Source: Gammaproteobacteria bacterium
GTDB lineage: Bacteria; Pseudomonadota; Gammaproteobacteria; DSM-19610
Reading direction: 5' to 3'
NCBI GenBank assembly: GCA_011374975.1
Contig: DRNU01000151.1
Span: forward strand, 19,935 to 83,934
Length of the DNA: 64,000 nt
Position 1 is the stretch's first letter. Each line of letters begins with the position of its first letter. The notes under the pieces are model-generated. The model was not told the origin of the DNA. It worked only from the letters and a program-made list of their open reading frames with translations, and made no database searches. Position numbers and translations under genes: made by a program. Below are positions 42,400 through 64,000 of the stretch, piece by piece.

Positions 42400-42401
42400 G
42401 T

Positions 42402-43187: not shown

Positions 43188-43860
43188 ACCTACTCCCTTC
43201 CCTGTGTGCAATTGGATTATGCGCTCCACTTGTACAACAGAACCGATAAAGGCGCCGAGCGTAAGTTCGGCCAGCCCGAGAAACGCTCCACTAAAAGCTT
43301 CGCCAGCAGTGATTCGCGAAAACCGCGACCGCTGCCCGTATGGTTATCGGTATTCTCCTGACCAATCAATGCCGCATCCTCCGCGGTTTAGAGTGAGTCC
43401 AGACCCGAGGCAACCTGTTATTCCGGTTCTGAAACCGGCAGTCAAAGAATTCGATGCTGGTAAGTATTACTGGACAGCCGCCATCACTCCCTGACATCGA
43501 ACCGCTTTGAATATAAGAAGATTAAACTCTCTTTTCCCTTGAGTCTACTGGAAGCCGGCAGTCATTTGGTAACCCGTTTATGCCCGGAGGATCGCGACAG
43601 AGTGGTTCCTATGCGCCAACTTTGCCACATCCTCACCCTCAAGCAGTGGTCCGTAGCGCTCCTGAAAACCTTCCACCATGGATTCACTATAGCCTGCACC
43701 GGCCTGAACACCGCTGAGCACGATCCCTGGCTCTACCCTGGACGTTGCCCCCGTTATGATTGCAATGCGTTTACAGGAATTGGTCGTAGCGGCACTCTTT
43801 GTCACAGTTCATTTGCCACAGTTAACCGTCAGAAAGGAGATTGTGCTGAGCAGTACGGTA
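43188..43860. other. Region with doubtful small ORF only
   Basis: Most of this stretch shows no recognisable gene. A minus-strand ORF of 75 codons (43578-43805, CKRIAIITGATSRVEPGIVL onward) has no ribosome site or known family and may be a fragment. Its neighbour to the right is a truncated glyoxalase, so the whole stretch may be decaying DNA. Confidence 0.35.
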
Positions 43861-46005: not shown

Positions 46006-46512
46006 CTAGTACAGGCCCGCGTCCAGTTCCTCGTTGAGGATGGCGGCCTCGCGTCTGAGGTCGTTAAGCAGTTTCTGTTTTTCGGCCAGTTTTTTTTCGT
46101 CACCGGCCCGGTTGAGGGCGGCGACCTTCTCTTCCATGCGTTTAACTTGCACGGCCAGGGCCTTGTTCTCGACACTGCGCTGTTCCAGGCGCGCCTGAAT
46201 GATAGACCAGGACTGGTTCAGCGCGGTCAGGTCCGCTTCCTTGCTCTTGCGCACGCCGGCCAGGCGTTGTTTTTCCTGCTCGATGGCATCGGCCAGTTCC
46301 CGGAAGGCCTGGTTCAGCTGCTCTTCTTCCGCCAGTTCGCTTTTCAGTTTCTGCTGCCGGACGGCGTAGCAACCGGACACGTTGCCGGAAAGGGCGTCGA
46401 CAAAGCTGTCGCCCCTGTTCGGGTCACAGTTTTCAGGCGAAACGGCGCAACCGCCCAGCAACACGGCAGACAGCGAGAGACCATACAGGCGCGCACAATG
46501 TTTGTCAGTCAT
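46006..46512 (-). CDS. Coiled-coil lipoprotein, last gene of the srf operon
   Basis: 168 aa with lipobox LGGC at about 19-22, then a heptad-rich helical body (LAEEEQLNQAFRELADAIEQ, VKRMEEKVAALNRAGDEKKL). A strong AGGAGGT site precedes the start. It is the final gene of the minus-strand srf-type operon, 11 bp after a similar lipoprotein. It may be a periplasmic spacer or tether. Confidence 0.75.
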   Translation of the reverse strand: MTDKHCARLYGLSLSAVLLGGCAVSPENCDPNRGDSFVDALSGNVSGCYAVRQQKLKSELAEEEQLNQAFRELADAIEQEKQRLAGVRKSKEADLTALNQSWSIIQARLEQRSVENKALAVQVKRMEEKVAALNRAGDEKKLAEKQKLLNDLRREAAILNEELDAGLY

Positions 46513-46523
46513 GTTCTACCTCC

Positions 46524-47243
46524 TCAGCCAATGGGTGAAACGCTGCGACGATTGATCAGGATATTGAGGTCCTCCTCGAGCGAAGCAATCTGTTCCTGCA
46601 ACTTGCCGATTTCCTTGTCCATTTCTACCATTTTCTTGCTGTTGGGCTGCTGCTTGCGTTCATCCTCGGCGACCTGTTTCCATTCCTCTTCGCGCTTGCG
46701 CAGGTTGGCCAGCGTCTGTTCGAGATAGGCCTTGTTGTCGTCCACCGACCGCATTTTCTCCTGCGCCTGTTCCAGGGTGATCTGTTTGGCGCGGTAAGCC
46801 TTGTCGATCTCATCGATCCGCTGCCTGTCCTCGGCCACCACTTCTCCCGCCGACTGGATGATACGGGACAGGCGGGCGTTGTCCTTGCGCACATCCTCGA
46901 TCATGGCCTGCAGGCGCTGTTCGCCGTTGGCGTATTGCTGGCGCTTGTTCTGCAGGTAGTAGTTGGCGCCCACGCCGACGCCACAGGCCACGATGGCGCC
47001 CCCGATCGCCTTGCCCTTGTCCCCGGTCAACAGATAGGTGGCCGTACCCACGGCCCCGGCACTGATCAAACAGGCCTGCAGGCCCGACGTGTTTATGGAT
47101 TTGCCTTCCTCACGGAGTTTCTGCTCCGAGGCCGTCATCGGGGCAGCGCCGCCGTCCGCCCTGGGCGGGTTAAGGTTACAGGCCGGCAGCAGGGTGGAGA
47201 CTACCAGCACGAGCGATAAGGCTTTTGTTGTAGTGGCTTTCAC
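46524..47243 (-). CDS. Coiled-coil lipoprotein with glycine-rich hydrophobic segment
   Basis: I place the start at the GTG at 47243, 8 nt after GGAGG, giving 239 aa with lipobox LPAC. A glycine-zipper-like stretch (SAGAVGTATYLLTG, IGGAIVACGVGVGA) is followed by a long coiled coil (VRKDNARLSRIIQSAGEVVA, LASLEEDLNILI-type heptads). Glycine-zipper lipoproteins can insert in the outer membrane. It follows the SUMF1-like gene on the same strand. Confidence 0.75.
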   Translation of the reverse strand: MKATTTKALSLVLVVSTLLPACNLNPPRADGGAAPMTASEQKLREEGKSINTSGLQACLISAGAVGTATYLLTGDKGKAIGGAIVACGVGVGANYYLQNKRQQYANGEQRLQAMIEDVRKDNARLSRIIQSAGEVVAEDRQRIDEIDKAYRAKQITLEQAQEKMRSVDDNKAYLEQTLANLRKREEEWKQVAEDERKQQPNSKKMVEMDKEIGKLQEQIASLEEDLNILINRRSVSPIG

Positions 47244-47340
47244 ATCATCATCCTCCATTTTGTTGTTCTACCTAATTTTCGTCATGGTAATACGATTATC
47301 GCTTCGAGAACAGGATGCCAGTCCCGTGACAACCGCGCCG

Positions 47341-48957
47341 CTAACGCTTCTCGGCACACTGTTTGAACCAATCCTGCCGGCGCACCCGCCAGTCCTTGCC
47401 GTATTCCGCAACCTGTTTGCTGTAGACATTGACAAAGGGAATCTGGGTATCGAAATGGCGTTTTTTCAGATCTTCGATCTGCAGTTCCAGCTGCGCCTGC
47501 AGCACCGGCGCGGGATAGTTCTGCGCCGTACCCATGAGCGATTCCGCGTAGATCCCAACACTATCCTCCAGGGCCTCCTGCTCGGGATCCAGCCGGCTCT
47601 TGTAGGCAAGACAGCGTTTGTTCTCGGCGCCACGCATCTTCAGGCATTTGTTGTATACCTTCTCCAGGAAGTCGATCGCGATGGCATCCTCCTGCAGATT
47701 CTGGCATTGCAGGCCACCCAGGCGCAGCGATTCCCGGGCGGCCTTGTCACGCTGCTGGTTACGGGCCTCGATGGTGGCGCGCATGGTATCGCGCAGGGCC
47801 GTGATGCGCCGTTTCATGTCCTTGTCACCCACGGTGCGGGCAATGGCGGCCAGTTCCTCGACAGGATCATCAAACGTCTTGCCTTTCAGCCCGGCGTTCT
47901 CGTCCTGGTGCTCATCCCCCTCCACACTGCCGAGGCCATTCCAGGCCCCGGCAATTTTCTGCAGCCGGTCCGGCGTGGTGATCACCGGCGTCGATATCAC
48001 CACCCGGAAGCCTGTGGTCTTGCTGCGCAGCGCCTTGCCATTCTTGTACAGGGGGACTTCCTGGCGCAGGGAGGTGCGTAATTCGGCCGCGGACGTGAAA
48101 TAGTTTCCGCCCCGGATCACGAAACCGCCGACCTGGCCATGCATGCGGTCCAGGCGATTCAGCCGGAACAGGTCCAGGGTGATTTCATCCACGTTACCGA
48201 GCATGTCGTGCAGGCCCAGCGGGTTGGGTTTCAGCAGCCCGGTGAGCTGCGCCTTGCCGTTGGCCGAGGCGGTGCCCGCCGACCAGGCGTAGCGCACGAT
48301 GCCCTCCGGCATCGGCGGTGTCTTTTCGCGGAAGTCCACGGGCGACACGCGGTCGCCGCCGCGCGCGGCGTATTCCCATTCGTCCTCGGTCGGCAGGCGC
48401 ACGAACCCGGGCACGCCATCCTCTTTCGGCAGCGCAGCAGCGCCCTCCCCGTTCAGCCATAGCGAATAGCGGTGGGCGAACTCCACCGCGTCGAACCAGT
48501 TGACCTGTGTTTGCGGCAGGCGGGTTTTCATGGTCGGCTTGCGGCATTCGCCGCTCATGACTGCGGCATACTGGGCCTGGCTGACTTCATACTTGCCCAG
48601 CAGGAAATAACGCGAGTTTGGCGTACCGGAAAAACTGCCGGCCAGGTGCGTATGGTGCGGGTTCTCGGCATACCCCAGGCTTTCCGAGCTGGTGCCCAGC
48701 GTGATCATGAGGTCGTCCAGCAGCCCCGCCGACTCGACCCCGACCTTGCGGAAGGTCATGGCGCCGCCGCAAGGCAAAGGGACGATGACATCACCCTCCG
48801 CCGGCTTGGGGTTGTAGTATTTTTCCGGCCACGACGGTTGCGCCGCGGCCATGACGAGCCCCGGGAGCAGGGCCAGCACGCCGGCCAGCCGGCGCCGTCG
48901 CTGCCGGAACCGATCAAATCTCACGCAGGCATTCAGCCGGGTCCACCTTACTTGCAC
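47341..48957 (-). CDS. SUMF1/FGE-like domain protein, probably non-catalytic
   Basis: Up to 538 aa. A signal peptide (LAGVLALLPGLVMAAAQ) lies near the N-terminus, and a GTG at 48927 is an alternative start. The SUMF1-like domain spans about 90-320: KYEVSQAQYAAVMSGECRKP, VNWFDAVEFAHRYSLWLNGE, RLPTEDEWEYAARGGDR, GFVIRGGNYFTS, TTGFRVV. The paired active cysteines of formylglycine-generating enzyme near the last motif are absent and GNVWEW is replaced by GNVDEI, so it is probably a binding module. A helical C-terminal part (LESLRLGGLQ onward) follows. It overlaps the ABC permease stop by up to 44 bp. Confidence 0.82.
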   Translation of the reverse strand: MQVRWTRLNACVRFDRFRQRRRRLAGVLALLPGLVMAAAQPSWPEKYYNPKPAEGDVIVPLPCGGAMTFRKVGVESAGLLDDLMITLGTSSESLGYAENPHHTHLAGSFSGTPNSRYFLLGKYEVSQAQYAAVMSGECRKPTMKTRLPQTQVNWFDAVEFAHRYSLWLNGEGAAALPKEDGVPGFVRLPTEDEWEYAARGGDRVSPVDFREKTPPMPEGIVRYAWSAGTASANGKAQLTGLLKPNPLGLHDMLGNVDEITLDLFRLNRLDRMHGQVGGFVIRGGNYFTSAAELRTSLRQEVPLYKNGKALRSKTTGFRVVISTPVITTPDRLQKIAGAWNGLGSVEGDEHQDENAGLKGKTFDDPVEELAAIARTVGDKDMKRRITALRDTMRATIEARNQQRDKAARESLRLGGLQCQNLQEDAIAIDFLEKVYNKCLKMRGAENKRCLAYKSRLDPEQEALEDSVGIYAESLMGTAQNYPAPVLQAQLELQIEDLKKRHFDTQIPFVNVYSKQVAEYGKDWRVRRQDWFKQCAEKR

Positions 48958-50161
48958 GATATCCTCCTACCAGGGAAGCCAACAGGGCTACCATCAATGT
49001 CAGGCCGCCTGCCAGGGCGGCATCGCTCCACTCCAGTTTACAGACGAACTGTGACTCCGCCAGGTTGGCGCCCAGCTGCCGGTTGAACACGTTCGCGCCG
49101 AAGCCGTACGCCAGCATGGCCAGCAGGTAGGCCGCCAGGGCGATACCCGCCGCCTGGATCGCGGGAATCAGCATCACGCCGTGGCGCCGTTGGCCAAGCA
49201 GGCGCAGCAGCGCCAGGTCGCGCCGCTTGCGCTCCACGTTGATCCACAGTGCGCCGCTCAGCGACAGGGCAAAACCCAGGCTGGCGATAATGGCGATGAC
49301 GCTGAAAATAAAGGTCAACACGCGCTCGATCGCCTTGACGTTTTCAATATCCCGGGCTCGCGTGCGCACCTCGATGCCGCTGTCGCGGATAAAATCCGCC
49401 AGTAGCGAAACCGCGTCCAGGTCCCGGGCATAGATCCTGGCGTTGGCAAAGATTGTTCTCTGCTGCTGTTGCTGCGCTCCCTCGCTGGCGCCGATGGCCT
49501 CGACCGCGTAGCCGTCGCGGTAATCCTCGATGGCCAGCAGCAGGTCGACCGTGGAAAACAGCGCGTTGCGGGTGTAGGCGCTTTCCGGCAACACCCCGAT
49601 CACCTCCAGCGCAAAGCGGGCGCGCTGGTCCTCGCCCTGCAGCCGGCGCTTTACCACGCCCTGCAGCTTTCCTCCCGCTGCCACCCCCAGCTGCCGCGCC
49701 GCAGTATAGCTCAGCAGCACCTGCCCGGTTTCACGCGGTACCGGCGTACCTTGCGGGAACAGCGGATCGCCCGCGGCAGTGGGGATCACCTCGATGCCGG
49801 CGATCACCCGGCGCCGCGCGCCGATGACATCCATGGTGGCGTTGATGGTACGGGTGCGCGGCACCACGAAACCGGCCTGGCCGGTGGCCTTCAGCGCGGC
49901 AAACCATGCCGGGTCGAGGCGCGTGTTCTCGAACACGATGATTTCGAGGTTGCGCGGATCGTCCAGTAACTGCTGTTTCAGCGTCGCCACCACCCCGGTC
50001 TTCAGGCCGAACAGCAACAGCAGCGGCGCCAGGATCGAGGCCACGGAGATAACCAGCACCAGCGACAGGCGGTAGTCATGGCGCAGGTCGTACAGCGCCT
50101 GCTCCAGACTGAAGCGCAGGAGTTTTCCTCCCGATGGCAGACTGTGTGTCGTGGCTGTCAT
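48914..50161 (-). CDS. FtsX/MacB-type ABC transporter permease
   Basis: 415 aa, four membrane helices: one near residues 33-58 and three in the C-terminal FtsX domain (FSVIAIIASLGFALSLSGAL, IPAIQAAGIALAAYLLAMLA, LMVALLASLVGGYRASKVDP). A large MacB-PCD-like periplasmic domain lies between. The DPAECLREI ending is typical of LolC/MacB permeases. It overlaps the ATPase stop by 4 bp. With no MacA-type adaptor nearby it may move lipoproteins or transmit force rather than efflux drugs. Confidence 0.88.
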   Translation of the reverse strand: MTATTHSLPSGGKLLRFSLEQALYDLRHDYRLSLVLVISVASILAPLLLLFGLKTGVVATLKQQLLDDPRNLEIIVFENTRLDPAWFAALKATGQAGFVVPRTRTINATMDVIGARRRVIAGIEVIPTAAGDPLFPQGTPVPRETGQVLLSYTAARQLGVAAGGKLQGVVKRRLQGEDQRARFALEVIGVLPESAYTRNALFSTVDLLLAIEDYRDGYAVEAIGASEGAQQQQQRTIFANARIYARDLDAVSLLADFIRDSGIEVRTRARDIENVKAIERVLTFIFSVIAIIASLGFALSLSGALWINVERKRRDLALLRLLGQRRHGVMLIPAIQAAGIALAAYLLAMLAYGFGANVFNRQLGANLAESQFVCKLEWSDAALAGGLTLMVALLASLVGGYRASKVDPAECLREI

Positions 50162-50868
50162 GCCAGCCCCTCGAATACCGAGCAGGCGTCGCCCGACTGC
50201 GCGCGGATTTCGCGCAGGCCGCAGGCCCGCACCCTGTCGTGGTCGTGGCTCACGATGACCGCTGCGCTGCCGGTTTTTTCGACCGCTGACATCATCAGTT
50301 CAAACACCTCGCCGGCCAGTTTCGGATCCAGCGCCGATGTCGGCTCGTCGGCCAGGAACAGCGCCGGCTCGTGCGCCAGCGCGCGTGCAATCGAGGCGCG
50401 CTGGCGTTCGCCGATGGACAACTGGTGCGGCTTGCGCCCGAGCAGGTGCCCGATGCCCAGCGCCTCGACCAGCTCATCCACCAGCGTCGATTGCAGCGAA
50501 AGACCCAGCAACCGCCGCACCAGGAAGATATTCCTGCGCACCGTCAGGTAGGGCAGCAGCCCGCCGGTCTGCAACACGAACCCGATACGTTCGGCGCGCA
50601 GCCCGGACAACTGCCGGTCCGAGCCGGCGCCCCACAGCGCCGCCAGGTCCAGCGGGCGGCTGTCACCGCCCTCCCGCCAGGCAAAGGCGCCGGCGCCATC
50701 GGGCCGCAGCACCAGGCCGAGGATCTCCAGCACGGTGCTCTTGCCGCAACCGCTGGGCCCGGTCAGCGCGATGACTTCGCCGCGCTCCACGGACAGGCTC
50801 GGGATGCGCACGCTGAAGCCCTGCGCCTGCAGGCCGCGGCGGCAATGGACATCTTCCAGATACAGCAC
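50158..50868 (-). CDS. ABC transporter ATPase (LolD/MacB-like)
   Basis: 236 aa: Walker A GPSGCGKS (37-44), signature LSIGE (150-154), Walker B ALFLADEPTSALD (169-181), and a HDHDR switch region. It pairs with the overlapping FtsX-type permease. It starts 17 bp after the vWA gene stop. Confidence 0.92.
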   Translation of the reverse strand: MLYLEDVHCRRGLQAQGFSVRIPSLSVERGEVIALTGPSGCGKSTVLEILGLVLRPDGAGAFAWREGGDSRPLDLAALWGAGSDRQLSGLRAERIGFVLQTGGLLPYLTVRRNIFLVRRLLGLSLQSTLVDELVEALGIGHLLGRKPHQLSIGERQRASIARALAHEPALFLADEPTSALDPKLAGEVFELMMSAVEKTGSAAVIVSHDHDRVRACGLREIRAQSGDACSVFEGLA

Positions 50869-50885
50869 GCCGCGCCCCGGCTCAC

Positions 50886-52895
50886 TCAGGGCAGGGCATC
50901 GAGCGGCACGGGATAGACGTGATCCGCCGGATCACTACCCTCCGCCAGGGAAATCCAGCGCCCTGTGTCACTGTTATAGATTTCATACAGGCGCATCATG
51001 CTTTTCACGGAATTGATAAAGGCCAGCTGCTCCTGCACCCCCCAGCGCGACCAGGTATCCTGATCCAGGTTCATGACCCGGCTCTTGTACGGCAGGTCAT
51101 CGAGGTATTCGCCCAGCAGGCCCATGTCCGCCAGCCGCGTCGAGCTTTTCTGCACCACCGCGTTCGGGTCGCGGCCCAGCACCGAAACGAAGGACCGCAG
51201 GCTGTCGTAGAATTTCTCCGGCGAAGTCAGGCCTTCGTTGGCGGCATCGACGATGCCCTTGAGCACCAGTTGCATGTCGCTGAGCTGTTTCTTGGTCAGC
51301 AACACGTGCACGTCGACCGAACGCCGGATCGGGTCATCGAAATCGATATCAGTGATCCAGGCGCGGAACACAGGCGGCGCCTGCGTCTGCTTGACGCGCC
51401 CGAGATAGGCCAGCTGCATGGCGTAACCCAGTCTGGCGATATCCTCGCGCACTTTCTCTTCCTGGCTGAGAGACGAGGTGTCGGTACCGAAATCGGCCGA
51501 GGCGCTCGCCGCGCTGCCGGCCACCTTGCCGCCCTTCCTGGCCGCCTCAACCTGTTCGACGATGGCGTCGGCGAGGGAATCGACAATCTTGCCGAACTGC
51601 TCCACCGAGCCGGTCTTCACCGGGTAATACAGCGGGTTGCTCAGCAGCGGGTGCGTCGACAGGGTGCGGTACTGCGCCTCGGCGCTGGCATGGTTCTTTT
51701 TGCCCTGCGGGGTCTTCAGGTGCATAACATAGGTGGCGACACCGCGGTGCAGGGCCTCCAGCCGGACCTGTTCCGCATCGAGGCCGGTGGCCGACAGCGG
51801 ATCGTCACCCTTGAGGGCACCGGCATCGGTCACCAGGATCATGTAGCGGGCGCCGAATTCTTTCCAGTCCACTTCATCGAGCGCCAGCATCAGTCCGGCA
51901 TAGCTGTCCTCGCTGAAACGGGCAGTGGACACGGTGGCGCGCTTCAGCGCCTTGACCCGGGAGAGGAAGTCCTTGCCGTCCTGCACCTCGACCGGATCGA
52001 CATATTCCCGGGCCACATATTCGAGCCCGGGGGAGACCTCCACGTTGGAACGGTAGGCCACCAGGCCGAACTTGACCCGGTCCAGCATGCCGGCCGCCTC
52101 GATGCGACGGTAGATGCGCGTGACCGCCTCGCGGGTGCGTTCGATATAGGGCCCCATGGACACGGTGGAATCGATCACGAAGACCACGGCGGCCTTGAAG
52201 CTCTTCAGGAAACCTGCATCCTCGTCTTCTGCCGCGCCACCGCCGCCGGCGCCATCAGCCTTGCTCTCGTCCCGGGTCACCGAGGCGACTTCGAGCACCC
52301 GGGCTGTCGGCCCCAGCGCGGTATATATCTCCTCGGACTGCAGGATAGGCAACAGGTAGAACTGTTTGTTGATGTCGACATAGGTCTCGGGCTCGATAGA
52401 GATCACCCGCTCGTCGCGCCCGCCTTTCTCGACCTTTGCGCGCAGCCCGGCGGCCAGTTTTCCCGCCTCCTCGGACTCCAGCACGTCCGCCAGGGCATCC
52501 CGGCTGGCAAACAGCAGGTTGCGCTCGCGCCCGGCGGGGTTGGCGAACGCCAGTACCAGCTGCTGCTTCCAGGGCACGGTCAGGTCGGCGCGCAGCCAGC
52601 CGCTGGTGTTGCCGCGCGGGTCCGGCCCCACTTCCAGCCATTCCTTGCCCTGGGCATCGGAGCGCGCATAGACATAGAAGCGCGAGAACACCGCCAGCGG
52701 CTTGCCCGCATCGGTCTGGCCCGGCTGTTTCACCAGGCTGGCGCCAGGCCGCGTCAGCACGCGCTGGTAGAGGGTCTTTTTGCCTTCCATCAGCAGCGGC
52801 TTGCGTTCGGCCATGGCCGGCGGCAATGCAACCAGGAGCAGACACAGCATCATCCCGATGGAAAGAAAACTCCGTGTTACACACCGTTTTTGCAT
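50886..52895 (-). CDS. Secreted vWA-domain protein with SH3-like N-domain
   Basis: From the Met at 52895 the protein is 669 aa with signal peptide ending LLLVALPPAMA. Residues about 41-115 look SH3-like (FYVYARSDAQGKEWLEVG, NTSGWLRADLTVPWKQQ). A vWA domain (about 235-430) has MIDAS DSTVS (242-246) and ILVTDAGALKGDDP. The helical C-terminus contains KVREDIARLGYAMQLAYLGR, and TWSRWGVQEQLAFINSVKSM. It may be a periplasmic scaffold for the adjacent ABC transporter. An in-frame Met at 53012 lacks a signal-peptide context. Confidence 0.8.
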   Translation of the reverse strand: MQKRCVTRSFLSIGMMLCLLLVALPPAMAERKPLLMEGKKTLYQRVLTRPGASLVKQPGQTDAGKPLAVFSRFYVYARSDAQGKEWLEVGPDPRGNTSGWLRADLTVPWKQQLVLAFANPAGRERNLLFASRDALADVLESEEAGKLAAGLRAKVEKGGRDERVISIEPETYVDINKQFYLLPILQSEEIYTALGPTARVLEVASVTRDESKADGAGGGGAAEDEDAGFLKSFKAAVVFVIDSTVSMGPYIERTREAVTRIYRRIEAAGMLDRVKFGLVAYRSNVEVSPGLEYVAREYVDPVEVQDGKDFLSRVKALKRATVSTARFSEDSYAGLMLALDEVDWKEFGARYMILVTDAGALKGDDPLSATGLDAEQVRLEALHRGVATYVMHLKTPQGKKNHASAEAQYRTLSTHPLLSNPLYYPVKTGSVEQFGKIVDSLADAIVEQVEAARKGGKVAGSAASASADFGTDTSSLSQEEKVREDIARLGYAMQLAYLGRVKQTQAPPVFRAWITDIDFDDPIRRSVDVHVLLTKKQLSDMQLVLKGIVDAANEGLTSPEKFYDSLRSFVSVLGRDPNAVVQKSSTRLADMGLLGEYLDDLPYKSRVMNLDQDTWSRWGVQEQLAFINSVKSMMRLYEIYNSDTGRWISLAEGSDPADHVYPVPLDALP

Positions 52896-52962
52896 ATCAC
52901 ACCCTGCCTCTCTGTCCCTGCAGGAGCGGGCTTGCCCGCACCTACAGGAAAAATGATTTGAT

Positions 52963-54105
52963 CTATTCATTCTCCCCCAGTTTGTCGAGCATAGCCGCGG
53001 CCTCCTTGTCACCGGCTTCGGCGGCGCGTTTCAACCAGCTCACCCCGCGTTCGTACAGTACCCCTGAGCTGTTGCTCTTCACCAGCAACTTGCCGAGCTG
53101 ACGCTGCGCTGCCACGTCACCGGCCTCGGCGGGCTGCTCGTACCAGTAGGAGGCGGTATCGGCATCGGCGGCCTGGATACAACCGCCCGCGCTGAAGCTG
53201 TCGGGATCGAAACGGCGCGCATAGTCGACGGCCACGGCCGGGTCGGCCTGGGCCGCGTACTGGTACACGATCATGGCCGCGGTGCAGTCGCCGGCCTGCT
53301 CCCACTCGCCCGCCTGGCGGTACATCTCGCTGGCGGCGGAACGCGGGTCCCGGCTCAGGTAGGACTGGGCCAGCGCACGGCCCTTGAGCACGGGGGATGC
53401 CGGTTCAGCGCCGGTTTGCGGAGTCGGCGGCACCACCTCCTCCTCAGAGGCATCCGCCGTGGTGTCTGTGGTCTCCGTCGCCGTTGCGGCCGGCGCAGCC
53501 GCGTCATCGTCCCCGCCCAACCCGGGAATCAGCTTGAAATACCAGGCCGCCGCCAGGACGACCAGTAACACCAGCAAGCCCAGTACCAGCGGCAGCCAGC
53601 GTGGCATTCCACCGCTGCTGGCGGGCGCTGCCGCTGCCGGTTGCGCCGGTTGCACCGGTTCGGGCGGTGGCGGCGGTGGTTCTTCGACTTCAGGCGCGGG
53701 AGGCGTTTCCCCGCCACCGCCCCCGGGCGTGTGCGGGGTGGCGTCCGGCGCCGACGGCGCGCCGCTGCCGGCGGCGTCGGAGCCCAGCAGACGACCGGCG
53801 ATCCGCAGCACGCCCTGCCCGCTGGTGCCGCCACGCAGCGCCACCATCAGTGCATCGTTCGATGACAGCAACAGACCATCGATGATGTCCGGTCCCAGGG
53901 TGCAACTGCAGCCATCGCCGGAGGCCTGCACATCACTGACCCGGTGCCAGTGCGCGGTGGCGGTCCACTGCTCGCCGCTGGCCAGATAATGGTGGTCCGA
54001 GCTGCGCTGGAAGCTCAGTTCCAGCTCGCCATTGACTTGCAGCTTCTGGATCGAAAGCGTGGCGTAGCCGGGACCGGTGCTGGTCAGCTGGATTTTCAGT
54101 GCCAT
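52963..54105 (-). CDS. Membrane protein with Sel1-type repeats
   Basis: The start at 54105 has GGAGG 8 nt upstream; 380 aa. A beta-rich N-domain (1-105), a Pro/Glu-rich linker, one membrane helix (PLVLGLLVLLVVLAAAWYFK) and C-terminal Sel1/TPR-like repeats (AASEMYRQAGEWEQAGDCTA, AEAGDVAAQRQLGKLLVKSN, SWLKRAAEAGDKEAAAMLDK). The domain order resembles a cytosolic-to-periplasmic connector. It starts 4 bp after srfC. Confidence 0.78.
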   Translation of the reverse strand: MALKIQLTSTGPGYATLSIQKLQVNGELELSFQRSSDHHYLASGEQWTATAHWHRVSDVQASGDGCSCTLGPDIIDGLLLSSNDALMVALRGGTSGQGVLRIAGRLLGSDAAGSGAPSAPDATPHTPGGGGGETPPAPEVEEPPPPPPEPVQPAQPAAAAPASSGGMPRWLPLVLGLLVLLVVLAAAWYFKLIPGLGGDDDAAAPAATATETTDTTADASEEEVVPPTPQTGAEPASPVLKGRALAQSYLSRDPRSAASEMYRQAGEWEQAGDCTAAMIVYQYAAQADPAVAVDYARRFDPDSFSAGGCIQAADADTASYWYEQPAEAGDVAAQRQLGKLLVKSNSSGVLYERGVSWLKRAAEAGDKEAAAMLDKLGENE

Positions 54106-54109
54106 GACT

Positions 54110-56815
54110 TCAAACCTCCGTCGCGGTAGCGGCGTTGCGCCCGCTGATGGTGGCCAGGATGCTGCCGAGCTGCTGATTTTGCTGTGGCGTGATGTCACGG
54201 CCCGCCGCATAGCCCGCGTTGTCCACCGCCAGCCGCTTGAAAGCCTCGAACCAGTCCAGGATAAACAGGGCGGAATAGTTCACCGGCCTGGCCGCCAGCT
54301 GCGGCAGCTGCCCGGACGGAATCGGTTGCGGCGGCTGGAACAGCTTGCGCCCCTTGACAGCAGCCGAGTCAGGCCGCTGGTCGAGCGGCAGGCCGCTGTT
54401 ACCGAGATGATCGACAAAATCATTGAGCAGGGAGCGCAGCGCCAGCACCTGCCGTTCCACCAGGTTGTAGCGCGTGGCCGAGGTGCGGCTCTCCGCCTCG
54501 TGCAGCGCGGTGACCAGCTGCTCTTCCAGCTTGAGACGGTCGGCGGCGGTGATCAGTTCGTCACCGACCTTTTCCAGGATGTTGCGCGGCAGGCCCAGGA
54601 ACTGGATCAGCTCGTCGCGCTCGGGCAGATCCCGCACCTGGCCGATCCAGTCGCGCAGCGCGTCCTTGGCGAAACGCACCGCGCCGCCCTGCGCCGGGGC
54701 GCCGGCAGCCGGGGTTTCCTCTTCTTCCTCGTCACCGCCAAGGTTGAGATCGATCAGCGAATCCAGCGCGTTCAGGCCGCTGTCCGCCGTGTCGTCCGCA
54801 CTGTTCTGGTCGGCCTCGTCGTCGGCCTCCTCCGCGCGCAGGTAGATAGGCCGCAGGCGGTCCGCCGACAGCTGCATGGCGTGCAACAGTTCACCGAAAC
54901 GGGAGCCACGGCCGCCGAGCACCTTGACCACTTCCGCCGCCATGCGCTCCTTGCCGCCCACCGCCTCATCGCCTTCTTTCTGGTAGTAGGCGCCAAGACG
55001 GTGGTTGACCAGGTCATCGATCATGTGCTCGACCTGTTCGCCGATGCGCGCCAGCTTGTGCTCCAGGCGCGCGGCCTGATCGAGGTAAGCGGCGAGGCGG
55101 CTGATGCCGCCGTCGTTGAACGCCAGCATGGCGTCCCAGGTCTGCTCCGGGTCGCGTACATGGGCCTGTACCGTAGGATCAGCGAGGAAGGTGCTGCGCA
55201 ACTGCGCCAGGCGTTCCTGCTGCTCCGGCACCACGCCGGTCTCGTTGTCGCCGCTGGTGGAGATGACGCCGGCGGCCATACAGGGCTTGCGCACCAGGAA
55301 CAGGTTGTTAAACGCCGTGCCCCTGGCCCAGTCCTGTACCCAGTCGTACTGGCCGAAGCGCTCCAGCAGCGCCATTTTCATCATGCCTTCCCAGCCGATC
55401 TTCATCATGTCGGCGGTCTGGTTCGGCACCGGCGCGAGCCGGAAGTCGAACATGGTGACCGCCCAGACAAGACCGGGAACCTTCCCCGCCCGCACCTCCG
55501 GGGTCTCGCCCTGGGTGGAATGTATCCAGGTCTCCAGCACCGGGCCGAGAGAATTGACGTCCATTTGTTTGTGCGAAGGGGTGCACAGCACCAGCACGTT
55601 CATTTCCTGGTCGTCGGTGTAGCGTTCGAACAGGTAGGCCACCTTGCCGCGCAGCACCAGCTGGGCGACGGGGTCAACCTGGTCATCCTTGAGCTGCTTG
55701 CGCACGTCCTCCAGGTCGCACACCGACAGGCGACCGCGGTAACCGGGGAAATCCAGCAGGTCGACCGACTCCAGCATATCCGCCACCGGCTTCTCGGCCA
55801 GTTCGAAACGCATCTCGGCGGTGAGCGCTGCGATAACCGAACGCGGCAAGCCGACCACCGGCAGCATGTCCTCACCGCGCACCGGCTGCACTTCGATCAG
55901 GTCGTCGTTGTCGCGCCCCAGGCGTTCCAGGATATCCACGTTCATGATGCTGTCGGCCTGCGACCATTCTCCGGAGTCGCCGCGCACCACCAGCGCGCTG
56001 ATGGGACAGAACAGGGTGTCCGCGAACTGGACGTCCTGCAGCGACTTGCGCAGCATCAGGTAGGTCTGCGAAAGCTCGCCGACCTCGCCCCACAGCACCG
56101 AGAACAGGGTGGCCCGGTCTTCCGGCTGCAGGTAGGGCGCAAGCTCGATGGCGGTCGGCCAGTAGACCCCGGCCAGGGGTTTCATGGCATTGGTGAAGCG
56201 CTTGTCGAAATAATCGTACAGGTCGACGACGTCATCCTCACTGACCCCGCCGGTGGCCTGCGGGCGGCGCTTTTTCTCCAGCCCGGCGAGCAGGCTACGG
56301 ATGTGCTCCGGCTCGGTGTTGCACTCCACTTTCTGCAGGTCGAAATCATTGAAGAAGGCGTTGCCCAGGATCTTGACCAGGTCGGCCTCTGAGAACAGTG
56401 CCAGCTGCAGCGGGAACCCGGCCGGTGTCTCGCGCTTGTGGTAGGTGAAGCGCGTGACCAGCCCGGTGGCCTCCTTGCCGCCACCAGGCGGGTTGACATG
56501 GCTGATGAAATTCAGGCGCTCGTCATCGAGCTGGGTTTCCAGTTCGCCGTTGCGACCCGCCGCCAGGGTGGAGATGAGGTAGGACTTGCCGGCCTGCGAC
56601 AGGCCGAAGAAGCCCACCGACATGGGACGGCCCGCGGCGCTGCCCAGGCGCACGGCCAGGTTGCGCATGCGGCGGATTTTCATCACCAGGTTTTCCGACT
56701 CGCGGTCCACCCGCACCGAGTTGTTGCGCACTTCATTGACCCAGTCGATGGCCTCGGCACAGCCCTGGTGTATGCCGGCACAACTTGCCTGTAACTGTTC
56801 GGGATCGGTACTCAT
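54110..56815 (-). CDS. srfC: SrfC-like dynamin-type GTPase
   Basis: 901 aa. The G1 loop is GLSQAGKS (71-78) and a G3-like motif is DLLDFPGYRG near 360. Long helical segments with acidic insertions (LDSLIDLNLGGDEEEEETPA) follow. Pfam calls such proteins virulence factor SrfC; the fold is dynamin-like and suggests a membrane-remodelling or signalling GTPase. It is separated from srfB by only 4 bp, so the two are surely co-translated. Confidence 0.82.
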   Translation of the reverse strand: MSTDPEQLQASCAGIHQGCAEAIDWVNEVRNNSVRVDRESENLVMKIRRMRNLAVRLGSAAGRPMSVGFFGLSQAGKSYLISTLAAGRNGELETQLDDERLNFISHVNPPGGGKEATGLVTRFTYHKRETPAGFPLQLALFSEADLVKILGNAFFNDFDLQKVECNTEPEHIRSLLAGLEKKRRPQATGGVSEDDVVDLYDYFDKRFTNAMKPLAGVYWPTAIELAPYLQPEDRATLFSVLWGEVGELSQTYLMLRKSLQDVQFADTLFCPISALVVRGDSGEWSQADSIMNVDILERLGRDNDDLIEVQPVRGEDMLPVVGLPRSVIAALTAEMRFELAEKPVADMLESVDLLDFPGYRGRLSVCDLEDVRKQLKDDQVDPVAQLVLRGKVAYLFERYTDDQEMNVLVLCTPSHKQMDVNSLGPVLETWIHSTQGETPEVRAGKVPGLVWAVTMFDFRLAPVPNQTADMMKIGWEGMMKMALLERFGQYDWVQDWARGTAFNNLFLVRKPCMAAGVISTSGDNETGVVPEQQERLAQLRSTFLADPTVQAHVRDPEQTWDAMLAFNDGGISRLAAYLDQAARLEHKLARIGEQVEHMIDDLVNHRLGAYYQKEGDEAVGGKERMAAEVVKVLGGRGSRFGELLHAMQLSADRLRPIYLRAEEADDEADQNSADDTADSGLNALDSLIDLNLGGDEEEEETPAAGAPAQGGAVRFAKDALRDWIGQVRDLPERDELIQFLGLPRNILEKVGDELITAADRLKLEEQLVTALHEAESRTSATRYNLVERQVLALRSLLNDFVDHLGNSGLPLDQRPDSAAVKGRKLFQPPQPIPSGQLPQLAARPVNYSALFILDWFEAFKRLAVDNAGYAAGRDITPQQNQQLGSILATISGRNAATATEV

Positions 56816-56819
56816 AGTA

Positions 56820-59795: not shown

Positions 59796-59814
59796 ACTAA
59801 TTCCGTCTCTCCGC

Positions 59815-61239
59815 CTATTCCGAACCGGCCTGGGTCATACCGACCGAGAATTTCTCGCCACTCGTGTAGCTGCCCTGGCAATCGGCCAGTCCGCCCTGCC
59901 CCACGCGGCACTCGACACGCGACTTCCTGAAACCGGTGCCGTCGGGGCAGCGAATGTTACCCTTGTCGCTGATCATCAGGCGCCCCTGGGCCATGGTTGC
60001 CGAGGTCGGTCCCTGGCACACCACGCCGTCGCTGCGCTTGTAACGCGCCACGCCCTCACCGTTATTAAACTCGTATTCCACGTCAATCGGCCGGCCGGTC
60101 TTGTCCATCAGGCTGGCATCGGAACGCCAGCGGCCATTGAGGAAATCGGTACTGCCGCTGCGCACCGCCTCCGCTGGTATGGCGAGCGGTGCCCCGGCTT
60201 CTTCAGCCTGCGGTACGGGTTCCGGTGGCTGCACGGCGTTCTCCGGCGCCGGAATATCCTCCGGCTGCGGTGGTTCTTCGGGCGGAGGCACATCCTCCGG
60301 CTGCGGCATCTCTTCCGGTTGCGGTATTTCCTCCGGCGCCGGCGTTTCTTCAGCGGGCGGCTCTTCGGCCAGCGGCGCCTGTTCCCCGGCTGCCGGCATA
60401 GCCTCCTCCAGGGGCGGTATACCGTCAGCCGGCAACCCCGGCATTTCACCGGCTGGCGGAGGCGCCACAACACCACCCCGACCGGGAACCATGCCATCGA
60501 GGTCCACACCCCGCCGCGGCAAGTCGACAGCAGGCTCACGCTCAGGCAACGCGGGTGCTTCGGGCAGGCCGCCGGTCTCCGGCAGGCCCGGCAAACCGAT
60601 ACCGGCAGGCCGGTTACATCCCCGCAACAGCAGGAACAGCAACAGCAGCAATAGCAGGGGCAGCAACAGCCACCACCAGCGAAAACGCCGCCGGGTCGCC
60701 AGCGGCGCGACGGCGGCCGGGGCCACAGAGGCCGGCGCAACCGGCGCTGCGGCGTCCATTACGGGCAACAGCGCAGCGACTGCATCGTAGCCCGGTTCGG
60801 CGTCGTGCCTGAGGAAACCCCAGAACACCAGCACCGGGCGGCTATTAACCAGGAACACGTGGCTGTCATCCGGGAAGTTCATGACATGCTCCAGCAGTCG
60901 CCCGAACGCCTGCCGCTCGGTCTCCTTGCCGGTCTGCATCTGCGCCCCGGTGGCAAGAACCCGCTCGCGCGCCTGCAGCAGTTCCTGCGCTGCGCTGCGC
61001 TGCTCTTCGGGGGTGGCCGCAGACCAGGGCACCACGTCACCTTCCCGCGGCGCATACCAGTCGATTCGGTCACCATCCTCGCTGCGACGGGGAATGGCGA
61101 AATAATCGGCAACGTCGGGACCGAGCTGCCGTTTGATAGCGGCCCGTAACTGGGGTGCAGACAGATAGACCGGGTTGCCATCGGCACCCAGCTGCCGGTA
61201 CTCCCGTAATCCTCCTGATTGAAGCAATATCGCAGTCAC
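59815..61239 (-). CDS. srfA: SrfA-like membrane protein with Pro/Glu linker and C-terminal lipocalin-like domain
   Basis: 474 aa. The cytoplasmic N-domain (1-150) contains FFAIPRRSEDGDRIDWYAP-type and FLVNSRPVLVFWG segments. A membrane helix (WWWLLLPLLLLLLLFLLLRG) is followed by a long Pro/Glu linker (EEIPQPEEMPQPEDVP) and a C-terminal domain FLNGRWRSDASLMDKTGRPI, suggesting a periplasmic beta-barrel. It shares the N-domain with its two neighbours. Confidence 0.75.
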   Translation of the reverse strand: MTAILLQSGGLREYRQLGADGNPVYLSAPQLRAAIKRQLGPDVADYFAIPRRSEDGDRIDWYAPREGDVVPWSAATPEEQRSAAQELLQARERVLATGAQMQTGKETERQAFGRLLEHVMNFPDDSHVFLVNSRPVLVFWGFLRHDAEPGYDAVAALLPVMDAAAPVAPASVAPAAVAPLATRRRFRWWWLLLPLLLLLLLFLLLRGCNRPAGIGLPGLPETGGLPEAPALPEREPAVDLPRRGVDLDGMVPGRGGVVAPPPAGEMPGLPADGIPPLEEAMPAAGEQAPLAEEPPAEETPAPEEIPQPEEMPQPEDVPPPEEPPQPEDIPAPENAVQPPEPVPQAEEAGAPLAIPAEAVRSGSTDFLNGRWRSDASLMDKTGRPIDVEYEFNNGEGVARYKRSDGVVCQGPTSATMAQGRLMISDKGNIRCPDGTGFRKSRVECRVGQGGLADCQGSYTSGEKFSVGMTQAGSE

Positions 61240-61329
61240 GAATCACTCTGGTTCTTGGTTTTCGGATCACTGTAACGCACTCGTGTCCGAATCAGCAAGC
61301 CGCCCCTGCCCGCCGGGGCCGTGCTTTGT

Positions 61330-62811
61330 TTATTCTTTACAGCCCAGCTCGAACGGCGCCGTGATCCGCGCCTCGTTGAGCGACTTTGCCAATTCCTCCA
61401 CCGAGTTCGGCTGGTACACCTTGCCGCCGCTTGTCTCGGCGACGCAGACCGATGAGCTCTCCGGGCCCATCTTGATGACATGCGCGGCCACCCAGGGCCG
61501 GGCCTTTTTGATGGCCCGGGCGGCGGCGCAAGGATCACCTTCGCAGCTCTCGATGCCGTCGGTAATCAGAATGATCAGGCCGGGCCTGTCCTCGCGGGTT
61601 CCGTCCAGCATGGCACCGGCCCGCTGCAGGCTGGCCGCGATCGGCGTGGCACCCTCGGGCGACAGCCTGCTCACGGCCTGTTTCATGGCGGCCCCTCCGC
61701 TGCTGACCGGGCTGATGGCCTGGCGCATGATCTGGTCGCAATCCGAATAGGCCACCAGCCCCATGCGGGTATCGGTGGGAACCGTGTCGATGAGCTGCTG
61801 TACCAGCTTCTTCGCCACCTGCGTCCGCGGCGGCCCGTACTTGCGGGTGCGGGCCGGATACTTCTGCTGCATCCATTCGACCCGTTCGGGGAACGGAGCC
61901 GGTGCCTGCAGGTTGGCCTGTTTGCCGCTAAGCATAGCCGACAGCAACTGCATCGTGGCCCTGGCCTTGGCGTTGCCCTCGTAAATCGACAGCTCTTCGA
62001 AGTAACGCTCGTTAAGCGCATTCAGTTCCGGTTCGGGCATGTTCAGCGGGAAGGCCATGCTGCCGGAATTGTCGTACACGAGCACCAGCGCCGGCGGGAT
62101 GATCTTGTCTTCCGGGCAGTATTCCGTGGCGGCCACCGGGCCTTCGATCACCGGCACCGGCGGCACCACCACCGGCGGCGGCACCACCACCGGCGGTTCT
62201 TCCCGCGGTTCCTCTACCGCCACTTGGACCGGTTCTTTGGGCGCCTCGACAAAATCATCGGGGGCCGACTCGCGCGGCCACAGCCACCAGAGCAGTAGTG
62301 CCAGCAACAACGCGGCGGCAACTCCTCCAAGCCACAGCCAGGGTCGCCCGACAACCGGCGCGGCCACGACCGCACGCCGGTCCCGGTGCCCCCAGAACGT
62401 CAGCACCGGCTGGCCCTCGACCACATAGACATACTCATCACCGGGATACTCGACAGCCTGGCGCAGGGCATCGGCCAGGTGCGCCGAACCGGGCTCGACC
62501 TGCGGCAGTTCATCAGACAGGCGCAGGATAGAGGCGCGGCGGTCTTCCAGCAGGCGGCGCGCTTCAGCCTGTTCGCCGGGACCGAGTTCGGACAGGCGCT
62601 GCGGGCGCCCGGCGAGATCGCTGTACCACTCCACCACGCCATCGTCCCCGGCCGCGCGCGGGCGCGCCAGCAGGGAGGCCGTCACCGGCGGCAGGTGACG
62701 GCGAATGAGCTTCTGCAGATCGTCATAGCGGGAAAAAACTTCCGTGCTGTCGCCACCGAAGGAACTCAGCCCCGAGTTTTCAAGACGGGCAACGCGCATG
62801 GATGGCGGCAT
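61330..62811 (-). CDS. SrfA-type membrane protein with periplasmic vWA domain
   Basis: 493 aa. The N-domain (1-150; YPGDEYVYVVEGQPVLTFWG) is the SrfA-type module. A membrane helix at about 157-178 and a Pro/Val/Glu linker lead to a vWA domain with MIDAS DNSGS (247-251), a TPIAA-type loop (GATPIAASLQRAG) and LIILITDGIESCEGDPC. It is first in the operon, 90 bp before srfA. AAGG lies 9 nt before the start. Confidence 0.82.
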   Translation of the reverse strand: MPPSMRVARLENSGLSSFGGDSTEVFSRYDDLQKLIRRHLPPVTASLLARPRAAGDDGVVEWYSDLAGRPQRLSELGPGEQAEARRLLEDRRASILRLSDELPQVEPGSAHLADALRQAVEYPGDEYVYVVEGQPVLTFWGHRDRRAVVAAPVVGRPWLWLGGVAAALLLALLLWWLWPRESAPDDFVEAPKEPVQVAVEEPREEPPVVVPPPVVVPPVPVIEGPVAATEYCPEDKIIPPALVLVYDNSGSMAFPLNMPEPELNALNERYFEELSIYEGNAKARATMQLLSAMLSGKQANLQAPAPFPERVEWMQQKYPARTRKYGPPRTQVAKKLVQQLIDTVPTDTRMGLVAYSDCDQIMRQAISPVSSGGAAMKQAVSRLSPEGATPIAASLQRAGAMLDGTREDRPGLIILITDGIESCEGDPCAAARAIKKARPWVAAHVIKMGPESSSVCVAETSGGKVYQPNSVEELAKSLNEARITAPFELGCKE

Positions 62812-62935
62812 ATCTGTACCTTTTGCTAGCGGGCCGGGCCCTTGTTATCCTGCACAGAAGCACTGCCGGTGGCAGCACAACCGAATTATACCCGAACCCT
62901 GCAAAGAACAAACCAGCCCGGCAGGTCGGAGCGCT
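62812..62935. promoter_or_regulatory. Divergent promoter region of the srf gene set
   Basis: This 124-bp gap separates the two divergent starts and should hold both promoters. AT-rich TTATCC and ATTATACC elements are candidate -10 boxes. A short hairpin (CTGCC-GGT-GGCAG) lies between them. No operator was recognised. Confidence 0.4.
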
Positions 62936-63901
62936 ATGATCATCAAGCCCGTCCAGGTCATCGAAACCAATTCCGTCGAGGAATACCATTTCGTGGGCGG
63001 CTACGGCGAACGCATCACCCTGCAGGCAGCGCCGCTGCTGGGCACCATCGGCCGGCTGTCGGACGACGAAGACACGGCGGCTTTTTTCGCCATTCCCAAT
63101 TTCAACGACCGCAAGACGCGGGTCACCTGGTTCAGCCACAACAAGGGACGCCTGGAGCCGTTCTGGGAACTCGGCGATGACCGCCAGCAAACTGTCCTGG
63201 AAGCACTGAAAAAGGTCAGCGCCGAAATCGGGCAGGTGACGCAGCGCCTGGCAAGCCTGCCGGCCGCCGAAGCCGGCACCTATGCGCAACTGATACCTTT
63301 GCTGCTCAACCTGCCCGAACCGGTCGAGTATCACCTGTACCTGATCGATGCAAAACCCGTGGTCACCCACTGGGGCATGAGCAAGCAGAAGACCGGCGCC
63401 TCACACGATACCCTCACCCCCTTCATCGCCGGCTGGGAGGAACGCCTGCAGGCACGCAAACGCCAGGCCGAGGAAGAAGCGCGCAACGCCGCGCGCGAAC
63501 GCTCTTTTCTGGGACGCCTTACGCGGGCCGGCGCCCGTAATGGAGCGGTGACTGTGTCACTGCTGTGGAATGACTGCAACGACCTGGACCTGCACGTGGA
63601 GTGCCCGGACGGGCAGACCATCAATTTCGAGCACAAGCTGGCCTGCGGCGGCATCCTGGATATCGATCGCAACGCCCACCCCAACGCCCTCACGCGCGAA
63701 CCGGTGGAGAACATTGTATGGACGCGGCAACCGGAGGTGCGCGGCAGCTATACCATCCATGTGCACCACTACCGGCAGTTCGACGAGACCACACCATCCA
63801 GCGCATTTGAACTGCGGCTCAAGCGCGGCAGCAAGGTGCAGCATTTCAAGGGTATTGTCAGCCAGGGCGAACGGGTGGAAGTTACCCGCTTCAAGGTTTG
63901 A
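62936..63901 (+). CDS. SrfA-type N-domain fused to DUF2135-like domain
   Basis: From the ATG at 62936 (GGAG 5 nt upstream) the product is 321 aa. Residues 1-170 repeat the SrfA module (FFAIPNFNDRKTRVTWFS, then HLYLIDAKPVVTHWGMSKQ). A charged helix (ERLQARKRQAEEEARNAARE) leads to a DUF2135/YfaP-like beta domain (LLWNDCNDLDLHVECPDGQT, IDRNAHPNALTREPVENIVW). It has no membrane helix, so it is probably the cytosolic member. It diverges from the operon and shares its promoter gap. Confidence 0.8.
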   Translation: MIIKPVQVIETNSVEEYHFVGGYGERITLQAAPLLGTIGRLSDDEDTAAFFAIPNFNDRKTRVTWFSHNKGRLEPFWELGDDRQQTVLEALKKVSAEIGQVTQRLASLPAAEAGTYAQLIPLLLNLPEPVEYHLYLIDAKPVVTHWGMSKQKTGASHDTLTPFIAGWEERLQARKRQAEEEARNAARERSFLGRLTRAGARNGAVTVSLLWNDCNDLDLHVECPDGQTINFEHKLACGGILDIDRNAHPNALTREPVENIVWTRQPEVRGSYTIHVHHYRQFDETTPSSAFELRLKRGSKVQHFKGIVSQGERVEVTRFKV

Positions 63902-64000
63902 TCAGAAAACTTTTTCGCCGCTTGCCTTCAGGCGCTCGGCGGCCTGCCGCATGTAGTCGATGTCCTGCGCCAGGGCGGGCCGCTGACGACGGTTGAGGTC
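63902..64000 (-). CDS. C-terminal end of an unidentified gene
   Basis: A minus-strand frame enters from the right edge and ends DYMRQAAERLKASGEKVF at the stop at 63904-63902, directly next to the convergent gene's stop. The 32 visible residues are helical. The family cannot be named from this piece; it may belong to the srf group. Confidence 0.5.
   Translation of the reverse strand, partial: DLNRRQRPALAQDIDYMRQAAERLKASGEKVF

What the first reader, a model, noticed from the sequence alone, without database searches (positions are those of the whole stretch)
46006..63904. Twelve-gene Srf-type envelope machine combining an actin/Hsp70-fold ATPase, dynamin-like GTPase, ABC transporter, two vWA proteins and lipoproteins
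Eleven minus-strand genes with gaps or overlaps of 4-90 bp, plus one divergent gene, join SrfB- and SrfC-like NTPases to an FtsX/MacB-type ABC transporter without a MacA adaptor. They also include a secreted vWA protein, a Sel1 connector, a SUMF1-like protein and two coiled-coil lipoproteins. The parts span cytosol, inner membrane, periplasm and outer membrane, which suggests one trans-envelope device. SrfA/B/C are named virulence factors, but their mechanism is not established as far as I know.
Basis: partly seen in the sequence, partly recalled or inferred. Interest (0 to 1): 0.82.

Follow-up and report, generated by a model that had tools for sequence, protein, structure and literature searches.

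The report
Damage sensor wired to dynamin GTPase
This gene cluster joins relatives of the sensor that some bacteria use to notice attacks on their outer membrane, with the usual signalling kinase missing, to a predicted membrane-reshaping (dynamin-like) GTPase and a predicted ATPase partner, so it would likely let a cell sense envelope damage and respond at its inner membrane rather than by firing a weapon.

Summary
In detail: eleven minus-strand genes plus one divergent gene, 46006-63901. The interpretation needs correcting. The ABC pair, the SUMF1-like protein and the secreted vWA protein are homologues of TagT, TagS, TagR and the periplasmic half of PpkA (one lipoprotein is distantly TagQ-like): the module that senses outer-membrane damage for the Pseudomonas type VI secretion system (T6SS). 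The PpkA kinase is absent. Among the best 80 of 302 loci found through the vWA gene, 77 hold srfB and 77 the permease, in a conserved order. Of 398 genomes, 15 have the vWA sensor: 8 also have srfB, 6 have it as T6SS PpkA, 1 is a third type. Four of the 8 lack a T6SS sheath gene. Twelve short srfABC loci form one clade nested among full clusters, so the short operon looks reduced. SrfC models as a dynamin-family GTPase. SrfA, VWA1 and the divergent gene share an N-terminal domain. Prior art: a 2013 paper reported srfABC beside tagQRST and ppkA in Deltaproteobacteria and treated PpkA as a kinase. Most likely function (inferred): kinase-free envelope-damage sensing that drives a membrane-remodelling response.

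The parts
46006..46512 (-). LP1, coiled-coil lipoprotein (lipobox LGGC, residue +2 A)
   Evidence: lipobox pattern in 71 of 76 relatives
46524..47258 (-). LP2, coiled-coil lipoprotein with Gly-rich stretch, distantly TagQ-like (window copy has an imperfect lipobox, LPAC)
   Evidence: profile 56-69 bits to the T6SS lipoproteins; no NCBIfam TagQ match; lipobox pattern in 71 of 73 relatives
47341..48957 (-). FGE, secreted SUMF1/FGE-fold protein, TagR-like, without the recalled catalytic cysteines
   Evidence: PF03781 120 bits
48914..50161 (-). PERM, FtsX-type permease, TagS-like
   Evidence: PF02687
50158..50868 (-). ABC, ATPase, TagT-like
   Evidence: PF00005
50886..52895 (-). VWA2, secreted vWA protein, homologous to the periplasmic half of PpkA, no kinase
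   Evidence: DxTxS motif invariant in 7 of 7 rows
52963..54105 (-). SEL1, predicted membrane bridge: N-terminal beta-sandwich, Pro-rich linker, membrane helix, periplasmic Sel1 repeats
54110..56815 (-). SrfC, predicted dynamin-like GTPase
   Evidence: PF10139
56820..59795 (-). SrfB, predicted ATPase with actin/Hsp70-type motifs
   Evidence: PF07520
59815..61239 (-). SrfA, SrfA-N domain, membrane helix, periplasmic C-terminal domain
   Evidence: NF040486
61330..62799 (-). VWA1, SrfA-N domain, membrane helix, periplasmic vWA domain
   Evidence: PF13519
62936..63901 (+). DIV, divergent soluble protein: SrfA-N domain plus a C-terminal domain with a sub-threshold DUF2135 match
60796..61233 (-). SrfA-N domain in SrfA
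62377..62766 (-). SrfA-N domain in VWA1 (71.5 bits)
62960..63394 (+). SrfA-N domain in DIV (75.2 bits)

Best explanation
This cluster places homologues of the type VI secretion damage sensor (TagR-, TagS- and TagT-like proteins, a more distant TagQ-like lipoprotein, and the periplasmic half of PpkA without its kinase) directly behind srfABC, and it likely works as a kinase-free envelope-damage response in which the sensor would switch on the predicted SrfB ATPase and the predicted dynamin-like GTPase SrfC at the inner membrane. Proposed steps, all inferred: damage at the outer membrane changes LP2/LP1 and frees or reorients the TagR-like FGE protein, helped by the ABC pair; FGE binds VWA2 as TagR is thought to bind PpkA; VWA2 engages the periplasmic Sel1 repeats of SEL1; SEL1 carries the signal across the membrane, its cytosolic beta-sandwich standing where PpkA has its kinase; SrfA and VWA1, anchored in the membrane and sharing the SrfA-N module, recruit SrfB and SrfC; SrfB uses ATP to load or release SrfC, which assembles on the inner membrane to seal or remodel it. 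Shown by my calls: the homologies, the conserved order, the missing kinase, the shared SrfA-N domain. Reported by others: SrfA, SrfB and SrfC form a complex when expressed in E. coli (PMC6950479), and TagQRST-PpkA reports outer-membrane damage in Pseudomonas aeruginosa (PMC11881912).
For: VWA2, PERM, FGE and ABC score 605-619, 359-383, 312-318 and 245-254 bits against the genes of six T6SS loci, in the same order; in one of these loci, read in more detail, the neighbours are PP2C, IcmF and DotU and the lipoprotein is NCBIfam TagQ at 505 bits. Kinase and PppA queries hit 0 of 100 srf loci and 6 of 6 T6SS loci. Conserved order in the 80 fetched loci. 8 of 15 genomes with VWA2 also have srfB, and 4 of those 8 have no VipB sheath gene, so the sensor has another task there. 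SrfC model: all 10 PDB matches at E <= 0.001 are dynamin-family. Partial loci fit a chain: srfBC+SEL1 (L028), srfABC+SEL1+VWA2 (L043, L069), full set. Damage sensing by TagQRST-PpkA (passages); DynA acts in membrane surveillance (abstract start in a listing).
Against: No experiment links the sensor to SrfB/SrfC. L098 has SEL1-VWA2-ABC-PERM-FGE with no srfC or srfB found on its 11.4 kb contig. L122 (G068) has the sensor without srfB and without a PpkA-type kinase match. Twelve short srfABC loci lack the sensor, so SrfABC can act without it. In three genomes of one genus (L029-L031) SrfA, LP1 and LP2 were not recognised. SEL1 is not shown to be homologous to the PpkA membrane part. A review says that outer-membrane damage by polymyxin B lowers srfABC expression through Rcs, while PmrAB raises it (PMC6543913, passage), and in Salmonella srfC mutants swarm poorly and the operon is under FlhDC (PMC4219756, passages). 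SrfABC is reported cytotoxic to HeLa cells (PMC6950479). TM-scores of the SrfC matches are low (0.18-0.22 over the whole model in the top 10).
Confidence: 0.5

Rival explanations
1. SrfABC is a secreted three-part toxin or effector, and the Tag-like module controls its release on contact with another cell.
For: SrfABC from Xenorhabdus stockiae is reported cytotoxic to HeLa and other cells, and the three proteins interact (PMC6950479, part 1 and passages). The 2013 paper suggested that PpkA might trigger export of SrfC (PMC3608642, passages).
Against: SrfA, VWA1 and SEL1 carry an internal membrane helix in 99% of relatives, which suits anchored rather than exported proteins; SrfB and SrfC have nucleotide-site motifs. 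The kinase that the export idea relied on is absent. 4 of 8 genomes have no T6SS sheath gene.
Confidence: 0.13
2. The cluster is an accessory regulator of the T6SS: the sensor and SrfABC act on T6SS assembly in trans.
For: Sensor homology to TagQRST-PpkA; the window's own genome has two VipB genes on other contigs; a kinase-FHA-PP2C trio lies 8.8 kb from LP1 in the window.
Against: 4 of 8 genomes with the full set have no VipB, three of them listed at 1-2 contigs and 100% completeness; kinase and phosphatase genes are absent from the 100 loci. The 2013 paper found T6SS machinery in only one of its genomes (PMC3608642).
Confidence: 0.1
3. The ABC pair and lipoproteins form a lipid or lipoprotein transport or tethering device, and SrfB/SrfC power or position it.
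For: The permease has weak similarity to LolCE, 34.6 bits; the parts span both membranes.
Against: The permease is far below the LolCE cut-off of 362.45 bits and is TagS-like at 359-383 bits; L043 and L069 have SrfABC-SEL1-VWA2 with no ABC, PERM or FGE in the next 10 kb.
Confidence: 0.1
4. An anti-phage or anti-bacteriocin system: envelope breach during attack triggers SrfC to block entry or lysis.
For: A bacterial dynamin, DynA, is reported to give phage resistance (PMC8844932, abstract start in a listing); the cluster is patchy (1 of 17 genomes of the genus), and srfB occurs on 142 plasmid records.
Against: PADLOC models match none of nine cluster proteins scanned; a tenth, LP2, gave only weak coiled-coil matches of 12-18 bits; ABC and LP1 were not scanned. 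Defence-island context was not tested.
Confidence: 0.12

Closest known systems
TagQRST-PpkA threonine phosphorylation pathway of the Pseudomonas H1-T6SS
   Same: vWA sensor domain, TagT/TagS ABC pair and TagR-like protein in the same order, plus a distant TagQ-like lipoprotein
   Different: No kinase, no PppA; the vWA part is a separate secreted protein; partners are SrfABC and SEL1; works in genomes without a T6SS sheath gene
srf-tag gene neighbourhood of host-associated Deltaproteobacteria (PMC3608642)
   Same: srfABC beside tagQ, tagR, tagS, tagT and a gene named ppkA (passages)
   Different: There ppkA was treated as a kinase; the paper also lists hap and ligA genes, and I did not compare its sequences
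Short srfABC operon of Enterobacterales (Salmonella, Xenorhabdus literature)
   Same: SrfA, SrfB and SrfC families
   Different: Short loci have none of SEL1, VWA2, PERM, FGE, LP2, LP1 in the 20 kb fetched; Xenorhabdus loci fetched here have the full set
Bacterial dynamin-like proteins (SynDLP, BDLP, DynA, IniA)
   Same: Predicted fold of SrfC and GTPase motifs
   Different: About 10% identity; SrfC is tied to SrfB and to a trans-envelope sensor

Membership tests
TagQRST-PpkA T6SS regulatory pathway | TagT/TagS-type ABC pair | tested here: met
   245-254 and 359-383 bits to six T6SS loci
TagQRST-PpkA T6SS regulatory pathway | TagR-type SUMF1-fold periplasmic protein | tested here: met
   312-318 bits
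TagQRST-PpkA T6SS regulatory pathway | TagQ outer-membrane lipoprotein | tested here: inconclusive
   LP2 profile 56-69 bits to the T6SS lipoproteins, but no NCBIfam TagQ match for the window LP2
TagQRST-PpkA T6SS regulatory pathway | PpkA periplasmic vWA region | tested here: met
   605-619 bits over residues 371-992 of PpkA (L120)
TagQRST-PpkA T6SS regulatory pathway | Ser/Thr kinase domain on PpkA and a PppA phosphatase | tested here: not met
   0 of 100 srf loci, 6 of 6 T6SS loci; none of the cluster proteins has a Pfam kinase match
TagQRST-PpkA T6SS regulatory pathway | Fha substrate gene in the locus | tested here: inconclusive
   0 hits, but the FHA query also found nothing in the T6SS control loci
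SrfABC | SrfA, SrfB and SrfC families adjacent in order | tested here: met
Dynamin superfamily (SrfC) | G-domain motifs | tested here: met
   P-loop residues G71, S73, Q74, G76, K77 in 30 of 30 rows; D355 and G358 in 29 of 30
Dynamin superfamily (SrfC) | Dynamin-type fold | tested here: met
Dynamin superfamily (SrfC) | GTP hydrolysis and membrane binding | not testable with these tools
   needs purified protein
Actin/Hsp70 superfamily (SrfB) | Two phosphate-binding motifs | tested here: met
   LDxGNS and DxGGGTTD invariant in 24 of 24 rows; that these are the superfamily's motifs is recalled
Actin/Hsp70 superfamily (SrfB) | Actin/Hsp70 fold | not tested
   no model made; no PDB sequence match at E <= 1
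Formylglycine-generating enzyme (FGE gene) | Catalytic cysteine pair (recalled) | tested here: not met
   no Cys in the RGG-Y stretch in 7 of 7 rows; fold relatives include PorK/GldK and FGE
LolCDE lipoprotein exporter | Score over the LolCE family cut-off | tested here: not met
   34.6 bits against 362.45

The most novel reading that the evidence does not exclude
SrfABC, annotated as 'virulence factors', is the output half of a second, kinase-free branch of the T6SS damage sensor. The PpkA sensor half stands apart from any kinase and is wired, through a membrane bridge with a new cytosolic beta-sandwich, to an ATPase-gated dynamin that repairs or remodels the membrane. The short enterobacterial operon is what remains after the sensor was lost.
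Probability: 0.38. Interest if true: 0.82.

Novelty: new variant of a known kind. Interest (0 to 1): 0.64.

Why it matters
SrfA, SrfB and SrfC carry 'virulence factor' names without an established mechanism. Tying them to a well-studied bacterial damage sensor gives a concrete hypothesis that simple gene removals can test, and predicts that one sensor feeds two different outputs: retaliation by T6SS, or a dynamin-based response. It also warns of misleading names: 9 of the 120 relatives of the vWA protein listed are called kinases by some source although they are 650-663 aa long and show no Pfam kinase domain.
Full report
WHAT IS THERE. The window is G000:C151:19935-83934 of an assembly of 249 contigs, 88.8% complete, 4.45% contamination, and ends where its contig ends. 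The twelve genes are real. From the divergent gene inward: DIV (+), then on the minus strand VWA1, SrfA, SrfB, SrfC, SEL1, VWA2, ABC, PERM, FGE, LP2, LP1. G+C is 64.3% in the cluster against 54.2% in window 1-45900 and 57.6-63.2% in six other readable stretches of the genome, one of them the start of the same contig. SrfB is in none of the 16 other genomes of the genus searched, so the cluster is probably acquired; a binning or assembly error cannot be excluded.

DO THE GENES BELONG TOGETHER. I searched from the far end with an alignment of VWA2 from seven genomes. In named genomes 302 relatives were found and the best 80 fetched, so the sample leans to close relatives. Their usual order is SrfA-SrfB-SrfC-SEL1-VWA2-ABC-PERM-FGE-LP2-LP1, with VWA1 before or after. 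Of 80: SEL1 80, SrfC 79, SrfA 77, SrfB 77, ABC 77, PERM 77, FGE 76, LP2 70, LP1 70; VWA2 is 80 by construction. Some absences are contig ends: L045 and L047 (srfA, srfB), L045 (ABC to LP1), L040 (FGE to LP1), L047, L079 and L098 (LP2, LP1). Others are real: L043 and L069 have no ABC, PERM, FGE or lipoprotein gene in 10 kb downstream; L098 has another gene (rpoH by my reading) where srfC should be, and no srfB or srfC match on its contig; L107, L118 and L119 have LP1 upstream and no recognised LP2. Median gaps between successive genes run from -32 to 32 bp, with earliest-start ORFs. Hosts include Pseudomonas, Azomonas, Proteus, Xenorhabdus, Pasteurella, Aeromonas, Bordetella, Alcaligenes and Rhodospirillum-type bacteria.

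PRESENCE AND ABSENCE. Of 398 genomes of the phylum 21 have SrfB over the family cut-off, 15 have the VWA2 profile and 8 have both; Fisher p = 7e-8, not corrected for relatedness. In 7 of the 8 the genes from srfB to FGE lie in one run on one contig; in G032 the run is broken by contig ends inside SEL1. In three of the 8 (L029-L031) SrfA, LP2 and LP1 were not recognised. The permease profile gives the same 15 genomes strongly and 4 others weakly, 41-51 bits; at most 4 candidates per genome were scored. So the sensor genes are with srfB in 8 genomes, in T6SS loci in 6, and in another setting in 1.

WHAT THE SENSOR PART IS. In the 6 genomes without SrfB, VWA2 is the C-terminal part of a 990-1164 aa protein followed by the ABC, permease, FGE-like and lipoprotein genes, and kinase and PppA queries hit all six loci. 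One locus (L120) was read in more detail: kinase at 8-249, membrane segment near 321, VWA2-like part 371-992, with PP2C, IcmF and DotU beside it and a lipoprotein that is TagQ by NCBIfam, 505 bits. This is the PpkA-TagT-TagS-TagR-TagQ module. Scores of the srf-linked profiles against the six loci: VWA2 605-619 bits, PERM 359-383, FGE 312-318, ABC 245-254, LP2 56-69. The window's LP2 has no NCBIfam TagQ match, so TagQ identity is only distant. In trees of VWA2, PERM and FGE the T6SS copies form one supported clade apart from the srf-linked copies, which I read as an old split. Kinase and phosphatase queries hit none of the 100 srf loci, each about 6-22 kb. In Pseudomonas aeruginosa, tagQ and ppkA mutants lose the T6SS response to indentation and to polymyxin B nonapeptide (PMC11881912, passages), and TagR is thought to activate PpkA through its periplasmic domain (PMC6082577 and PMC3224232, passages). 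Four of the 8 genomes with the srf-linked set have no VipB gene, so the set must serve something else there.

HISTORY. In the SrfB tree (97 rows) the 12 short srfABC loci form one clade with full local support, nested among full clusters and next to Proteus, Xenorhabdus and Silvania. The simplest reading is one loss of the sensor. That these are the textbook operon is inference from gene content. L028 (SEL1 only) and L043 and L069 (SEL1 plus VWA2) form an intermediate series.

HOW IT LIKELY WORKS. See the best explanation. Composition and homology are strong. The direction of the signal and the nature of the response are the weak points. SrfA, SrfB and SrfC are reported to form one complex (PMC6950479, passages). 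Against a simple damage response, a review says that polymyxin B damage lowers srfABC expression through Rcs while PmrAB raises it (PMC6543913, passage), and in Salmonella srfC mutants swarm poorly (PMC4219756, passages); both concern bacteria with the short operon, as far as I recall.

WHAT IS ALREADY IN PRINT. PMC3608642 (passages) reported srfABC beside tagQ and ppkA, mostly with tagR, tagS and tagT, in host-associated Deltaproteobacteria, found T6SS machinery in only one of them, and suggested that the PpkA kinase might trigger export of SrfC. PMC6950479 (part 1) mentions T6SS control genes near srfABC in Xenorhabdus. My searches showed in their listings no paper on the missing kinase, the dynamin fold of SrfC, the shared SrfA-N domain or the short-operon clade; some lists were cut, subscription papers are mostly not held, and I opened only the papers named here.

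SCORES. Composition and homology about 0.9, function about 0.5. Interest 0.64: the rewired sensor is surprising and testable, but the neighbourhood has been seen before and the function is inferred.

Noticed in passing
window 33926-37167 (-): PP2C, FHA and Ser/Thr kinase (with TPR) genes in a row, 8.8 kb from LP1; the kinase matches T6SS PpkA kinases at 229-236 bits. Whether it belongs to a T6SS or serves this cluster is open.
   Followed up: partly
window 5563-12652 (-): Calvin-cycle genes: RuBisCO large chain, CbbQ-type AAA protein, a vWA protein (CbbO by my reading) and class-II fructose-bisphosphate aldolase.
   Followed up: no
window 37885-43229 (-): A 1379-aa KAP-family NTPase followed by a 275-aa protein with a lipoprotein-like N-terminus and no Pfam family at 1e-3.
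   Followed up: no
L122 (G068) 7519-15344: A third setting of the sensor: VWA2-ABC-PERM-FGE-LP2-LP1 without SrfB and without a PpkA kinase match.
   Followed up: partly
L098 1142-11276: Enterobacterales MAG contig with FtsE-like, FtsX-like and RpoH-like genes (my reading) directly before SEL1-VWA2-ABC-PERM-FGE; no srfB or srfC match.
   Followed up: partly
L079 156-1295: Aeromonas SrfA-N protein with a sub-threshold TerD-like C-terminal domain, 18.8 bits against a cut-off of 25.3.
   Followed up: partly
L041: A contig titled Stygiobacter (Ignavibacteriota MAG) carries the cluster with SrfB nested beside alphaproteobacterial copies: transfer or binning error.
   Followed up: no
plasmid records: SrfB relatives (under 60% identity) on 142 plasmid records, 114 of them Klebsiella and 12 Rahnella; whether these carry the sensor genes was not checked.
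   Followed up: no
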